From: a virus
DNA length: 23,531 nucleotides
Virus record (IMG/VR): IMGVR_UViG_3300042991_000226
Location: 1-23,531 of that record
Direction: 5' to 3' (one strand)
Shown: one piece after another, positions 166 to 20,725 of the stretch
How the letters are laid out: every line of letters begins with the position of its first letter
How positions within the stretch are numbered: the stretch's first letter is position 1
Notes under the pieces: generated by a model
Database searches by the model: none
What the model was told of the DNA's origin: nothing
The model's input: the letters and a program-made list of their open reading frames with translations, nothing else
Program-made: the position numbers and the translations under genes

Positions 166-924
166 TTATTCAACGTATCCAGACACTCTTACTCGTTGGC
201 TAACAAGATGGGTTAGATTATCCCGAATTACTATTTGGAGTTCATCATTGGTCGCGCCATCCAATCTAAAATATTGACCTGTATCTGTGATTTTCCACCT
301 TGCTGCAACAAATTCATTGCCAGTACCAAAAGCGTGATGATTAAAGTCTACCACCATCGAAGCAAGGTCAATATGGGATTTGATAGCACAATTAAAAAGT
401 GGAGTGACTACACCATTGATAGATTTTTGAAATAACATACCGTTTGTTAAAGGGACACCTCCATTATTCCCCCAACCAGAAGAATCAAAAGCCCCAGAAT
501 CTTCAATAGTAAGCATCCACCAGGCGAATCTATATACTTCTGTTAGTGGTGGTTTAATTCTGAATACTACGGGAGTAACCGAACCATCCACATTCATATT
601 GATACTACCCGTTCCGTCCCCAACGGTATCGGCTTGCCTACAGATAATAGCTTTTTGTGGGCCTGTAAATGTATTGTTTGAATCATCAACAGTTATAGTT
701 CCACTTACGGGTTGAGTTGCTGGGAAGTTTGAAACTGCAACACTCCCACTAACCGGCTGAGTCGCTGGAAAGTTTGTCACTGCAACATTTCCACTAACTG
801 GTTGAGTTGCCGGAAAGTTTGAAACTTCGTGCTTCAATATTTGAGGATCAATATCAGTTCCCGCGCCGGATGCACTCAAATATTTAGTTGTTCCTGTTGA
901 GTCTTTTACCGTTAAATTAGCCAT
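166..924 (-). CDS. Virion-associated protein with NFPATQPVSG repeats
   Basis: A 252-residue protein. Residues 36-75 hold three copies of NFPATQPVSG spaced 15 residues apart (linkers NVAVT and SVAVS). This repeat is a familiar low-complexity spacer in phage and prophage structural proteins. The remaining ~170 residues look like a beta-rich globular domain (for example FRIKPPLTEVYRFAWWMLTIEDSG), consistent with a head or tail decoration or a fibre-tip domain; I cannot assign an activity. The start ATG directly follows the TAA of the preceding gene, and an AGGAG lies 8 bases upstream of it. No catalytic motif is visible. Role in adsorption is inferred from position. Confidence 0.75.
   Translation of the reverse strand: MANLTVKDSTGTTKYLSASGAGTDIDPQILKHEVSNFPATQPVSGNVAVTNFPATQPVSGSVAVSNFPATQPVSGTITVDDSNNTFTGPQKAIICRQADTVGDGTGSINMNVDGSVTPVVFRIKPPLTEVYRFAWWMLTIEDSGAFDSSGWGNNGGVPLTNGMLFQKSINGVVTPLFNCAIKSHIDLASMVVDFNHHAFGTGNEFVAARWKITDTGQYFRLDGATNDELQIVIRDNLTHLVSQRVRVSGYVE
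700..819 (-). repeat. Tandem coding repeat, 45-bp unit (NFPATQPVSG)
   Basis: Almost three direct 45-bp units encode NFPATQPVSG plus a 5-residue linker. The protein repeats are identical over 10 residues while the DNA differs at synonymous positions, so the protein sequence appears to be under selection and the repeat is not a very recent duplication. Confidence 0.85.
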
Positions 925-17052: not shown

Positions 17053-17346
17053 CTACAACCTCACCAGCAAGACTGCACATTGTTCCCAGGGGAACATCCC
17101 CGAGGAGGCCATTGTATTAAGACCTGTGTTCCAGTGGACTATATCAATAGGCTCATTGTGGGTAAGACTTCCAGAAGGAGTCGGCACTGTGGCGCTGGGG
17201 ATATATGGAAAATCACTGCTGGCGGGGGACGCCAGTATTGCGTCCCTAAGTCTTGCTGGCAGGTAGGAGTAGGCAATATATGGCAAGACAAATAAATTGC
17301 CATAAATAGTACCGTGGATAAGGAGTAAGGAGTGCTCGTCAGACAT
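17053..17346 (-). CDS. Hypothetical tail-module protein (97 aa)
   Basis: Begins MSDEHSLLLIHGTIYGNLFV seven bases after the previous stop and ends four bases before the 520-aa gene's start. The hydrophobic N-terminal part (LFVLPYIAYSYLPARL) is followed by a Ser/Pro-rich middle and a C-terminal WNTGLNTMASSGMFPWEQC. Not clearly transmembrane. Function unknown; co-transcription with tail genes suggests a small virion or assembly protein. Confidence 0.6.
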   Translation of the reverse strand: MSDEHSLLLIHGTIYGNLFVLPYIAYSYLPARLRDAILASPASSDFPYIPSATVPTPSGSLTHNEPIDIVHWNTGLNTMASSGMFPWEQCAVLLVRL

Positions 17347-17681: not shown

Positions 17682-18521
17682 TTATGCTCCTAATTTAACC
17701 AGTAAAGTATGATTTTTCGGGATGCCATACCTCCCCTCGATTACGATGTACTCGCTGCCGGAAATATTTATTATTTCTTTGTCCACATACACATCCCCGC
17801 CTCTGATCCTATACACATTGGGTATAAAGCCTAACGGATGCCAGACCGTTGCAGTGAGTGAATTAGCCTGACATAGTGGGATTGGAAATGGAATAATGGC
17901 GGCATTAAAGGTGTTTGGTTGGGATATCCCCAAGTTGGATACGCTGTTGGTATAGTCATCATTAACGGCTAAACCAATAAGCCGATTGACCCCGTTTGAA
18001 GATTTGGCTGTCCATTGCCCGTTGACATAAACAAAGGCTATGTCCCCTATCGTAGGCCCAAACGTGTCATTGGCAGCGCTGCTGGCTAAGACAAAGTTTT
18101 TTACAAAAATACCATCTGCCCAAACCCCCACTTTATCCGTGATATTACCCATATACATTGTTGCCCTATTTGGGAATAAAGGGGCAGCCCACCATTTGAC
18201 CACCATAATACCGATACAAGAGATTAAATATATAATATCTCCGACAATAAATTGGTCGTAGTAGATGGAAGTTAGAGAGGTGTTTGGCTGGGTGCTATTT
18301 GTGGCTCCGCTGTCGTACCCCGTACAACCGTACAGGGCAATCTGACTAGAGCTATTATACGCGAGCAGATCAAAATGGGCGACCCCCTTATGAATATGCA
18401 AACGGTAGTTTGTCCCCTCAGAGTACAGATCAACTGTCCAGCCGTTAGCTTCTGCAAACAGCTTTAATCTGGCAATCGCATCATTAGCCGTGGTGAAGGT
18501 AAATTCTTCAAAATATGCCAT
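17682..18521 (-). CDS. Tail protein, paralogue of the 287-aa protein (279 aa)
   Basis: Begins MAYFEEFTFTTAND and contains FAEANGWTVD at residues 22-31, which matches FAVANGWVVD at 21-30 of the 287-aa protein. Both are beta-rich virion-type proteins of nearly equal length with a Tyr/Trp-rich middle (here IGIMVVKWWAAP). The ancestral gene probably duplicated in tandem. Unlike almost all neighbours, no Shine-Dalgarno lies before ATG 18521; the bases upstream are AT-rich and come from the end of a TnpB element. Expression may therefore be reduced, or rely on upstream read-through transcription. Role: probably fibre or tail-side structural protein. Confidence 0.7.
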   Translation of the reverse strand: MAYFEEFTFTTANDAIARLKLFAEANGWTVDLYSEGTNYRLHIHKGVAHFDLLAYNSSSQIALYGCTGYDSGATNSTQPNTSLTSIYYDQFIVGDIIYLISCIGIMVVKWWAAPLFPNRATMYMGNITDKVGVWADGIFVKNFVLASSAANDTFGPTIGDIAFVYVNGQWTAKSSNGVNRLIGLAVNDDYTNSVSNLGISQPNTFNAAIIPFPIPLCQANSLTATVWHPLGFIPNVYRIRGGDVYVDKEIINISGSEYIVIEGRYGIPKNHTLLVKLGA

Positions 18522-18522
18522 A
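18512..18522. repeat. 11-bp direct repeat at the right side of the TnpB element
   Basis: AATATGCCATA, identical to 19851-19861. On the coding strand it reads TATGGCATATT and contains the start codon of the 279-aa gene. Confidence 0.8.
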
Positions 18523-18533
18523 GTTGTAAATTT

Positions 18534-18547
18534 TATAGTTATCTATA
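18534..18547. repeat. 14-bp inverted repeat
   Basis: TATAG-TTAT-CTATA forms a short AT hairpin between the putative omega-RNA end and the start of the 279-aa gene. Its loop (ATAA on the coding strand) equals that of two omega-RNA hairpins nearby. Confidence 0.5.
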
Positions 18548-18550
18548 GAA

Positions 18551-18690
18551 TTTGATGGCTTATGCCACTTTTTAGACGCTTCAACGAAACTTGCCATTGT
18601 GATAACTGGTCTTACTGTTTCTCTGCGTCCGTTAGGCACAAGCAACTCCTTGTGCCAGAAGCCTTATGGCTTCATTCTTAATGTTAATTG
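18551..18690 (-). ncRNA. Putative omega-RNA (TnpB guide RNA) scaffold
   Basis: Overlaps the last ~20 codons of tnpB and runs into the right end. Reading the minus strand there are three hairpins: GAAGCC-ATAA-GGCTTC (18673-18658), GGCACAAG-GAGTTG-CTTGTGCC (18656-18635) and TGGC-ATAA-GCCA (18567-18556), the last followed by TCAA, which resembles IS605-type right ends. In known TnpB systems the guide is the ~16-20 bases just beyond this end. The 5' limit is not visible. Confidence 0.55.
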
Positions 18691-19744
18691 AAGCGTTCAA
18701 ATCCCTTGAGATTCTTACGCCGCAATCACAAACCCAAGACCTGTCTGATAGAGCCAAGTCTTTCTTTATAACGCCACAACAGCTACAAAGTTTTGAGGAT
18801 GGAAAGAACTTTCCAACTTTCTGTACAGTTCTACCGGCCCACTCTGCCTTGTAACTCAAGAAAGAAACAAATTGAGACCATCCAGCGTCAGAAATTGCTT
18901 TTGAGAGCTTTCTGTTTTTTACCATACCAGAGATATTCAAGTCTTCCAACCCAATGACTGAATAAGTATTAACAATCATCCTTGAGACTTCATGGTGAAA
19001 ATGCTTTCTTTGATTTCTGATTTTTTCATGCAACAAAGCCACTTTCAGCCTTGCTTTCCTTCTTCTGGTTGAGCCTTTCTTCTTTCTTGAAAGAGACTTC
19101 TGAGCCTTCCGTAATTCAGCTTGACTCTCACTGAAGAACTTTGGATTAGAAATCTCTGTACCATCGCTTAAAACAGCGAAGGTTTTAATACCAACATCAA
19201 TTCCGACCACTGAGTCTGTTACAGGGAATGGTTTGGATTTGAGTTCTTTAACCAGAACCGAAACGAAAAACTTCCCTGACGGATCTTTAGAAATTGTCAC
19301 AGACCTGTAGTTACAATCTTTGGGTGGTCTGTGTTCCGCAATTACAACCTTCATCCGACCAATCTTCTCCAGTCTAAGGAAGTTATTTCCTAAATTAAAT
19401 TTCTGAGAAGGTAGAGAGTAAGATTGTCTTAAACTTTTTGACTTGAACTTTGGTCTTCCAACTTTCTTCTTTCTGGTCTTTGAAAAGAATTGCTTCTTAA
19501 ACTCAAGGAAATTATTGAAAGCACTCTGCAATGCTGCGGCAGAAACTTCCGACATCCAGTCAAACTTCTTCTTAATCTCTGTGGAAGACTTAGGGAACTC
19601 CGCCTTCTGATCAACTGGAGAATTAAATGCTTCAGTACAAGCATTCCAAACTACACGACAACAGCCAAAAGTCTTATTGAGCAAGACTTCCTGGTCTTCA
19701 GTCGGGTAAATTCTGTATTTGTAGGCTTTAAAAATCTGCATCAT
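18632..19744 (-). CDS. tnpB: TnpB RNA-guided nuclease (OrfB of IS200/IS605)
   Basis: A full-length 370-residue TnpB starting MMQIFKAYKYRIYPTEDQ. The RuvC-like site looks intact: D183 in GIDVGIKTFAVL, E267 in SVIGLEDLN, D348 in ISRDLNASINI. A zinc finger lies between the last two motifs with C320/C323 and C339/C341 (KLCSCCG ... SWVCDCG); the second pair is C-x-C rather than C-x2-C. TnpB uses an omega-RNA from the element's own right end to cleave DNA next to a TAM and helps keep the element. Its ATGATG overlaps the stop of a 39-codon frame that starts upstream. No TnpA partner is present, so mobility would need one in trans. Confidence 0.92.
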   Translation of the reverse strand: MMQIFKAYKYRIYPTEDQEVLLNKTFGCCRVVWNACTEAFNSPVDQKAEFPKSSTEIKKKFDWMSEVSAAALQSAFNNFLEFKKQFFSKTRKKKVGRPKFKSKSLRQSYSLPSQKFNLGNNFLRLEKIGRMKVVIAEHRPPKDCNYRSVTISKDPSGKFFVSVLVKELKSKPFPVTDSVVGIDVGIKTFAVLSDGTEISNPKFFSESQAELRKAQKSLSRKKKGSTRRRKARLKVALLHEKIRNQRKHFHHEVSRMIVNTYSVIGLEDLNISGMVKNRKLSKAISDAGWSQFVSFLSYKAEWAGRTVQKVGKFFPSSKLCSCCGVIKKDLALSDRSWVCDCGVRISRDLNASINIKNEAIRLLAQGVACA

Positions 19745-19860
19745 TTAAGATTTTGATAAGTTTTTCTGTCAGCCTTCTCGTTCTGCGTCTGCCATAAAGC
19801 CTTGTGGTGAAAGAAGTTACAAGACTTATGAAATCCTGCATAAGTTGTATAATATGCCAT
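19741..19860 (-). CDS. 39-codon leader frame, likely displaced start of the 279-aa gene fused to the IS left end
   Basis: ATG 19860 reads MAYYTTYAGFHKSCNFFHHK and stops in the TGA that overlaps the ATGATG of tnpB. The ATG has an SD (GAGG, ten bases upstream, inside the end of the 287-aa gene), and its first ten bases are identical to those of the 279-aa gene. The rest looks like IS left-end sequence. It is probably a by-product of insertion that now couples tail translation to tnpB, rather than a functional protein. Confidence 0.45.
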   Translation of the reverse strand: MAYYTTYAGFHKSCNFFHHKALWQTQNEKADRKTYQNLK

Positions 19861-19861
19861 A
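19851..19861. repeat. 11-bp direct repeat at the left side of the TnpB element
   Basis: AATATGCCATA, identical to 18512-18522. See the mobile element for interpretation. Confidence 0.8.
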
Positions 19862-20725
19862 TTAATTCATCCTCAATGCACAGAAGTCCCCTATTGCTGA
19901 TCTGCTACAATCTTGAAATGTCATGTAATTTATACCACCCACCGTGATAATGTTCTCTGACGACTGATTATACCCACTCACATAGAACAAACCTTCTATC
20001 GCCCCGCATATGTCTGCAACCGCGCTATATGTTTTCATTTTTTTTACATACAACTGCTCCAGCATATAGTGCCCGTCTATTGATGCTGCCAAATTAAGGT
20101 GGAAATAATTGGTGAAGGAAGCTACCTCCACGATAGAGGGAGCGCCGGTATAGCCGGTTCTGATAGGGACCCAGTCCCCGCCGGGAACACAAAACATACC
20201 GCCGATTTTGGTATATGCTATACAATTCCAGTATGCGGAGCGGTTTGCATTGGTATAATTTTCAGTTTTTATGTCGCCGCTGCCCCCTATCAGCAGGGGA
20301 TAAGGGTATTGGTTTTCCGTTCCAGGGACGGTCAATAGTCCCAGGTGGACATGCTGGAAGGTTGAGCCCACCTTGACAACAACAATGATTCTTCTCGGTG
20401 TGGCAACCATCCAATATGGGATTGGCTGATTCCAAAAGTAGCCAATAGCGTTATCCAGTCCAGACGACAGTGGCATGACGTCATAGGTTCTTCCTGCCCT
20501 ATAGGCCCAGGCGCCATTCAAAACCCAGTTGTAACAATCAGTGGGTACGTTCTCATAGGTGGCCACTCCCACGTAAATCTCGTCCAGGCCGGACAACCCT
20601 GTTCCGTGCATGAACACCTTGTCGGCAGTCTGTTCATCCACCACCCAGCCGTTGGCCACGGCAAAGGTCACCATCAAGGCCAAAAGGTCTTTATATCCGG
20701 ATGCTGTTCCACTTGTGTAAGCCAT
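19862..20725 (-). CDS. Tail protein, paralogue of the 279-aa protein (287 aa)
   Basis: Begins MAYTSGTASGYKDLLALMVT and contains FAVANGWVVD at residues 21-30, followed by a beta-rich body with motifs common in a family of tail-associated phage proteins: NQPIPYWMVATPRRIIVVVKVGSTF and YPYPLLIGGSGD. These features suggest a virion structural or fibre-like subunit assembled near the tail tip. GAGG eight bases before the ATG supports the start, 13 bases after the tape measure stop. Its stop precedes the TnpB insertion. Exact function unknown. Confidence 0.7.
   Translation of the reverse strand: MAYTSGTASGYKDLLALMVTFAVANGWVVDEQTADKVFMHGTGLSGLDEIYVGVATYENVPTDCYNWVLNGAWAYRAGRTYDVMPLSSGLDNAIGYFWNQPIPYWMVATPRRIIVVVKVGSTFQHVHLGLLTVPGTENQYPYPLLIGGSGDIKTENYTNANRSAYWNCIAYTKIGGMFCVPGGDWVPIRTGYTGAPSIVEVASFTNYFHLNLAASIDGHYMLEQLYVKKMKTYSAVADICGAIEGLFYVSGYNQSSENIITVGGINYMTFQDCSRSAIGDFCALRMN
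19871..19874 (-). promoter_or_regulatory. Orphaned Shine-Dalgarno (GAGG) of the 279-aa gene
   Basis: GAGG in the last codons of the 287-aa gene, ten bases before ATG 19860. In the uninterrupted operon it would have served the 279-aa gene; now it serves the 39-codon leader ahead of tnpB. The 279-aa gene has no equivalent. Confidence 0.45.

What the first reader, a model, noticed from the sequence alone, without database searches (positions are those of the whole stretch)
18512..19874. TnpB element has detached a tail gene from its ribosome-binding site
Seen: the 11-bp sequence TATGGCATATT occurs at both edges of the tnpB region. The left copy has a GAGG in the previous gene's end, at operon-like spacing; the right copy, which carries the real start of the 279-aa gene, has no SD. 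If one repeat copy and everything between is removed, the 287-aa stop, SD and 279-aa ATG join in the same compact way as the other genes. Known IS200/IS605 insertions do not make target duplications, so the 11-bp repeat is unusual and needs explaining.
Basis: partly seen in the sequence, partly recalled or inferred. Interest (0 to 1): 0.72.

Follow-up and report, generated by a model that had tools for sequence, protein, structure and literature searches.

The report
Truncated TnpB element inside phage gene start
In this phage fragment, a broken mobile element carrying an RNA-guided DNA cutter (TnpB) sits exactly on the start of a tail-region gene, has probably taken over that gene's ribosome-binding site, and carries a guide that matches relatives of the phage that lack the insertion.

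Summary
The 279-aa gene has lost its SD.

The family assignment and the "target duplication" do not hold. The sequence just inside the left copy encodes the last ~37 codons of an IS607-type serine transposase, LMQDFISLVTSFTTRLYGRRR… (NF033518, E = 5.8e-5). Relatives L003 and L004 carry IS607 tnpA upstream of tnpB. The transposon's left end and most of tnpA are therefore missing, and the left junction is a truncation, not a transposon end. The right end looks genuine: TAAAATTTAYAACTAT is shared with L004.

I read the repeat as a scar. The left copy is uninterrupted empty-allele sequence running about 9-10 bp past the insertion point, joined illegitimately to tnpA. The right copy is target sequence behind the transposon's AACT(A).

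Inferred consequences: the stolen SD and ATG start a 39-codon ORF ending in ATGA on the tnpB start, so TnpB may be translationally coupled. The guide (22/22 match in L002) would cut element-free relatives. The left copy keeps a 9-nt seed match, so TnpB might bind it without cutting.

New variant of a known kind.

The parts
19851..19861 (-). Left copy TATGGCATATT: original start region of the tail gene, still behind its SD; start of a 39-codon ORF
   Evidence: matches the empty-site relative L002 continuously; anti-SD energy -6.0
18512..18522 (-). Right copy TATGGCATATT: real start of the 279-aa gene; first T (or TA) belongs to the transposon right end, the rest is target
   Evidence: RE end TAAAATTTAYAACTAT shared with L004
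19871..19874 (-). GAGG Shine-Dalgarno of the tail gene, now feeding the left copy
   Evidence: Sequence; same GAGG in L002
19728..19844 (-). C-terminal remnant of IS607-type serine transposase tnpA (LMQDFISLVTSFTTRLYGRRRTRRLTEKLIKILNDADF*), overlapping the tnpB start
   Evidence: NF033518 transpos_IS607 E=5.8e-5, profile 163-185 of 187; alignment to L076 and L004 TnpA
19741..19860 (-). 39-codon ORF from the left-copy ATG, ending in ATGA on the tnpB start codon; possible translational coupling
   Evidence: Sequence (frame 0); function inferred
18632..19744 (-). tnpB, 370 aa, ISDra2-like RNA-guided nuclease with RuvC D-E-D and zinc-finger cysteines present
   Evidence: Pfam PF01385/PF07282/PF12323; NF040570 315 bits; aligned to ISDra2 TnpB 8h1j
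18521..18680 (-). Right end and putative omega RNA scaffold (end of tnpB to the right copy); the 5' limit is approximate
   Evidence: Fold -45.2 kcal/mol, z -5.4; 3' end conserved with L004
18499..18520 (-). Predicted guide TGGCATATTTTGAAGAATTTAC (tail-gene start)
   Evidence: 22/22 in empty-site relative L002 behind AACTAATA; 14/22 with 9-nt seed at the left copy; boundary inferred
17682..18521 (-). 279-aa tail-region gene displaced from its SD
   Evidence: 75% identical to L002 278-aa protein, dN/dS 0.19, ORF intact
19862..20725 (-). 287-aa upstream gene, distant paralog of the 279-aa gene
   Evidence: 80% identical to L002, 23% to the 279-aa protein
18508..18639 (-). Small ORF (GTG, 43 aa) behind AAGGAG that reads across the right-copy ATG and stops 11 nt after it; candidate reinitiation route for the 279-aa gene
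   Evidence: Sequence and frame 0; speculative

Best explanation
This is a tnpB plus right-end (omega RNA) remnant of a composite element: an ISDra2-like TnpB paired with an IS607-type serine transposase. Its right end is a real transposon end, abutting the tail gene's start. Its left end is a break inside tnpA; the transposon's left end and roughly 150 codons of tnpA are missing. The 11-bp repeat is not a target duplication. The left copy is plain empty-allele sequence that continues about 9-10 bp past the insertion point and was then joined to the interior of tnpA. The right copy is the same target sequence lying behind the transposon's conserved AACT(A). The simplest route is illegitimate, one-sided recombination between an empty phage genome (left) and an occupied one (right), possibly provoked by TnpB cutting the empty allele, whose start region it is guided to. 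As a result the native SD and ATG now start a 39-codon ORF ending in ATGA on the tnpB start, so TnpB is probably translated by coupling, while the 279-aa gene starts without an SD. Shown: empty site, tnpA remnant, missing left end, intact nuclease residues, guide match. Inferred: the recombination route, coupling, cutting of relatives, weakened tail-gene translation.
For: Empty site with one copy in L002; joined flanks align gap-free. tnpA C-terminal codons begin at 19844, 7 bases inside the left copy. L003 (91% TnpB) has tnpA N-terminal sequence in front of tnpB with a different internal deletion. L004 has a complete IS607 tnpA overlapping tnpB. RE terminus TAAAATTTAYAACTAT shared with L004 at the same place; only 3 of 300 random pairs gave a 15-mer that close. 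tnpB start has no SD (+2.2) while the left copy has one (-6.0). TnpB aligns over its length to ISDra2 TnpB; omega RNA region fold z -5.4. Guide matches L002 22/22. IS607 and IS200/605 transposition make no target duplication (PMC6188088; PMC8612924).
Against: Only one empty-site relative and no intact copy of this exact element were found, so the left breakpoint cannot be placed to the base and the two-allele recombination is not seen directly. L002 is 75-80% identical, not a sister strain. The LE/RE ends of L004 rest on a terminal inverted repeat of modest strength (5 of 500 shuffles) and no empty site. TnpB of ISDra2 cuts 15-21 bp from the TAM, whereas the left copy keeps only 9-10, so trimming must be assumed. 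The ATGA overlap could be chance (about one frame in three).
Confidence: 0.6

Rival explanations
1. True 10-11 bp target duplication: a linear tnpA'-tnpB-RE fragment was captured in a staggered double-strand break and the overhangs were filled in, giving one copy on each side.
For: Overlap of 10-11 bp has P of 2.5e-6 to 9e-6 by chance; the left end is a truncation, as end-joining capture would give.
Against: The right end ends at a conserved transposon terminus, not at a random fragment end; no known enzyme here leaves 10-11 base overhangs at this place; TnpB cuts further downstream, at 15-21 bp from the TAM.
Confidence: 0.2
2. Clean IS607 insertion by crossover at GG (or TA) inside the start codon region, then deletion of LE and tnpA; the left CATATT is leftover element sequence that matches the target by chance.
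For: IS607 elements recombine at GG dinucleotides and ATGGCATATT contains GG; the upstream tnpA is IS607-type.
Against: With GG given, 9 further matching bases have P about 3e-5, and six on the right alone 2.6e-4; in L004 the RE terminus is followed by AC, not GG.
Confidence: 0.12
3. Two gene starts existed before: a third tandem paralog of the 287/279 genes began with ATGGCATATT and was replaced by the element.
For: The 287- and 279-aa proteins are distant paralogs, both starting MAY.
Against: L002 has exactly one start, with the 287 stop, SD and 279 ATG joined; bases after the left copy encode tnpA, not a tail protein.
Confidence: 0.03
4. Assembly chimera of an empty phage genome and a tnpB-bearing one.
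For: The window is a fragment from a metagenomic virus collection; the left junction is illegitimate in form.
Against: An 11-base repeat is shorter than usual assembler k-mers; the right junction is a natural transposon end; frames at the left junction end neatly on tnpB.
Confidence: 0.05

Closest known systems
ISDra2 TnpB / reRNA (IS200/IS605 family)
   Same: TnpB aligns over residues 6-366 with the D-E-D triad and zinc finger; the best-scoring family-specific TnpB model is IS200_TnpB (366 bits, below its 425 cut-off); structured right end followed by a guide from the flank; TTAAT before the target resembles the ISDra2 TAM TTGAT.
   Different: No Y1 transposase; the upstream remnant is a serine transposase.
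IS607-family elements (serine transposase TnpA + TnpB)
   Same: tnpA remnant in the IS607 model, tnpA/tnpB overlap as in L004.
   Different: Left end and most of tnpA missing; GG at the exchange site not supported by L004; TnpB scores far below the IS607_TnpB cut-off (188 against 350 bits).
TnpB-driven transposon homing / plasmid gene drive (PMC8612924, PMC11870625)
   Same: Guide matches the element-free allele of a related phage, including the whole target stretch.
   Different: Phage tail operon, no working transposase, activity untested.
TldR, TnpB-like nuclease-dead repressors (PMC13418256)
   Same: A short seed match next to a TAM-like sequence exists at the element's own left copy; TldR guides as short as 6 nt repress.
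   Different: Here the RuvC residues are intact and the site is its own operon.

Membership tests
TnpB RNA-guided nucleases | OrfB_IS605/RuvC and zinc-finger domains above curated cut-offs | tested here: met
   PF01385 109 bits, PF07282 78, PF12323 58; NF040570 315 against 100
TnpB RNA-guided nucleases | D-E-D catalytic residues | tested here: met
   Alignment to ISDra2 TnpB 8h1j: GIDVGIK, LEDLN and RDLNAS positions kept
TnpB RNA-guided nucleases | Omega RNA with guide from the right flank, RNA-guided cutting | not testable with these tools
   Strong fold (z -5.4) and 22/22 guide match in L002 only
IS607 family | Serine-recombinase TnpA | tested here: inconclusive
   Only a 37-codon C-terminal remnant in the window (NF033518 E=5.8e-5); complete tnpA in the 47% relative L004
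IS607 family | Both transposon ends present | tested here: not met
   tnpA codons lie 7 bases inside the left copy; no left end
IS607 family | Exchange at GG without target duplication | tested here: inconclusive
   GG lies in the target, but the RE terminus in L004 is followed by AC
IS200/IS605 family | Y1 (HUH) TnpA | tested here: not met
   Remnant upstream of tnpB is serine-type
TldR repressors | Inactivated RuvC | tested here: not met
   D-E-D intact

The most novel reading that the evidence does not exclude
The duplicated left copy is a built-in regulatory site. It keeps a TAM-like TTAAT and 9-10 bases of guide match, enough for the TnpB ribonucleoprotein to bind but not cut, right at the start it stole from the tail gene. 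Nuclease-active TnpB would then restrain its own operon while still cutting element-free sister phages, an immobile RNA-guided homing gene with built-in autoregulation.
Probability: 0.06. Interest if true: 0.8.

Novelty: new variant of a known kind. Interest (0 to 1): 0.42.

Why it matters
If right, it shows how a TnpB that has lost its transposase can persist in a phage by taking over a structural gene's translation start, with a guide aimed at relatives lacking the insertion. It also gives a concrete caution: a perfect 11-bp repeat around a tnpB gene need not be a target duplication. The empty site and the guide match make the homing idea in phages directly testable.

Tried and rejected
Plain IS200/IS605 insertion: rejected because of the serine-transposase remnant. 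GG crossover with the left CATATT as element sequence: kept only as a weak rival because the extra match is improbable. Search for the RE pattern AAATTTACAACTATGG in viral contigs gave 62 stretches, none next to a TnpB related to this one. Close TnpB copies in bacterial genomes: none. 12 further viral TnpB relatives at 37-41% lack a detectable serine transposase motif upstream and did not help to fix the ends. More empty-site relatives: only L002 again. Empty site for L004: none found. An idea that L004 and L076 fix a TA exchange core was dropped: the L076 ends were not better than shuffles, and joined L004 flanks give more than one plausible reading. Rfam: no hit. Tail proteins 279, 287 and 108: no Pfam hit.

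Full report
Check of the observation. TATGGCATATT occurs exactly twice in the window, at 18512-18522 and 19851-19861 on the minus strand. Read on that strand, the 287-aa gene ends ...GAGGATGAATTAA T ATG GCA TAT T, and after 1339 bases the 279-aa gene starts ...AAATTTACAACT ATG GCA TAT TTT GAA. Anti-SD energies are -6.0 at the left copy and +1.6 at the right copy, while all other starts tested except tnpB's own (+2.2) lie between -3.2 and -11.9 kcal/mol.

Empty site. One relative, L002 (IMG/VR 3300042991_000086), encodes the 279-aa protein at 75% and the 287-aa protein at 80% identity and has no insertion: GAGGATGAACTAATATGGCATATTTTGAAGAATTTAC. The two window flanks, joined only for comparison, align to it over 240 bases with no gap, with two mismatches in the 56 bases up to the end of the repeat. 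Chance overlap of 11 bases at a junction is about 2.5e-6.

What the insert is. tnpB encodes 370 aa with OrfB_IS605, Cas12f1-like_TNB and HTH_OrfB_IS605 domains, closest among solved structures to ISDra2 TnpB apart from a designed variant, with catalytic D-E-D and zinc-finger cysteines in place. Among the family-specific NCBI models it scores best with IS200_TnpB (366 bits, cut-off 425) and much lower with IS607_TnpB (188, cut-off 350). Yet its neighbour is not a Y1 transposase. The bases from 19844 read LMQDFISLVTSFTTRLYGRRRTRRLTEKLIKILNDADF* and overlap the tnpB start; they match the end of the IS607 transposase model (NF033518, positions 163-185 of 187, E 5.8e-5) and align with complete IS607 TnpA of L076 and L004. 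L004 (47% TnpB) carries a complete IS607 tnpA overlapping tnpB. L003 (91% TnpB over 253 residues) carries the N-terminal part of the same kind of transposase in front of tnpB, with a different internal deletion. The element is therefore a composite: ISDra2-like TnpB, IS607-type TnpA, with tnpA broken independently in the two closest copies.

Ends. tnpA coding sequence begins within 7 bases of the left copy, so the transposon left end and about three quarters of tnpA are missing. The right end is different: TAAAATTTAYAACTAT is shared by the window and L004 about 100 bases after the homologous tnpB C-terminus, where 3 of 300 random pairs gave a 15-mer as close, and the region folds strongly (z -5.4), as an omega RNA should. 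After AACTAT the two elements diverge (GGCATATT against ACACTAAA), which places the right boundary at AACT or AACTA and gives no support to a GG exchange in this subfamily.

Explanation of the 11 bp. The right copy is T or TA from the transposon terminus followed by the target (A)TGGCATATT. The left copy is target sequence that is continuous with the upstream flank, as in L002, and runs about 9-10 bases past the insertion point before tnpA begins. A clean insertion cannot give this, and IS607 and IS200/605 elements make no duplications (PMC6188088; PMC8612924). A junction between an empty genome on the left and an occupied genome on the right gives it without coincidence. TnpB cutting of the empty allele, 15-21 bases from the TAM, is a possible trigger, but trimming must be assumed; this step is inference.

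Consequences. The left-copy ATG, behind the native SD, opens 39 codons that end in ATGA on the tnpB start; tnpB has no SD of its own. Coupling of tnpB to the stolen start is likely but inferred. The 279-aa ORF is intact and was under purifying selection relative to L002 (dN/dS 0.19, 287-aa gene 0.21), but its present start has no SD. A 43-aa ORF behind AAGGAG reads across that ATG and stops just after it, and might allow reinitiation; this is speculative. The predicted guide TGGCATATTTTGAAGAATTTAC matches L002 at 22 of 22 positions behind AACTAATA, and the left copy at 14 of 22 with a 9-nt seed behind AATTAATA. This fits homing against element-free relatives (PMC8612924, PMC11870625) and leaves open binding without cutting at the left copy, since related nuclease-dead TldR repressors act with guides as short as 6 nt (PMC13418256).

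Limits. One empty-site relative, no intact copy of this element, no reads. The phage group is poorly sampled: the 279-aa protein has no match in 50,697 phage records, and the 287-aa protein only matches of about 29% at best, mostly in Pseudomonas phages.

Noticed in passing
L003 3700-4010 (IMGVR_UViG_3300000234_000139): Nearest TnpB copy (91%) also has a broken IS607 tnpA, with a different internal deletion, and hardly any room for a left end behind a dCMP-deaminase-like gene; tnpB seems to outlive tnpA in these phages.
   Followed up: partly
L004 3340-5230: Complete IS607 tnpA plus ISDra2-like tnpB between two phage genes; its left end seems to supply the stop codon of the upstream gene, and the downstream gene starts TTG GCT with repeated GTSGSS motifs.
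   Followed up: partly
window 17682-18521 and 19862-20725: The 279-aa and 287-aa proteins are distant tandem paralogs (about 23% identity), both starting MAY with a shared FAxANGW motif.
   Followed up: partly
window 18508-18639 (minus strand): AAGGAG followed by a GTG-started 43-aa ORF running through the omega RNA region and stopping just past the 279-aa start codon.
   Followed up: partly
L002 6360-6806: Gene with near-exact tandem repeats of HSLLLLAEEDNTNTVLK where the window homolog (17053-17346) has one unit only.
   Followed up: no
window 166-924 (minus strand): 252-aa protein begins with repeated NFPATQPVSG units.
   Followed up: no
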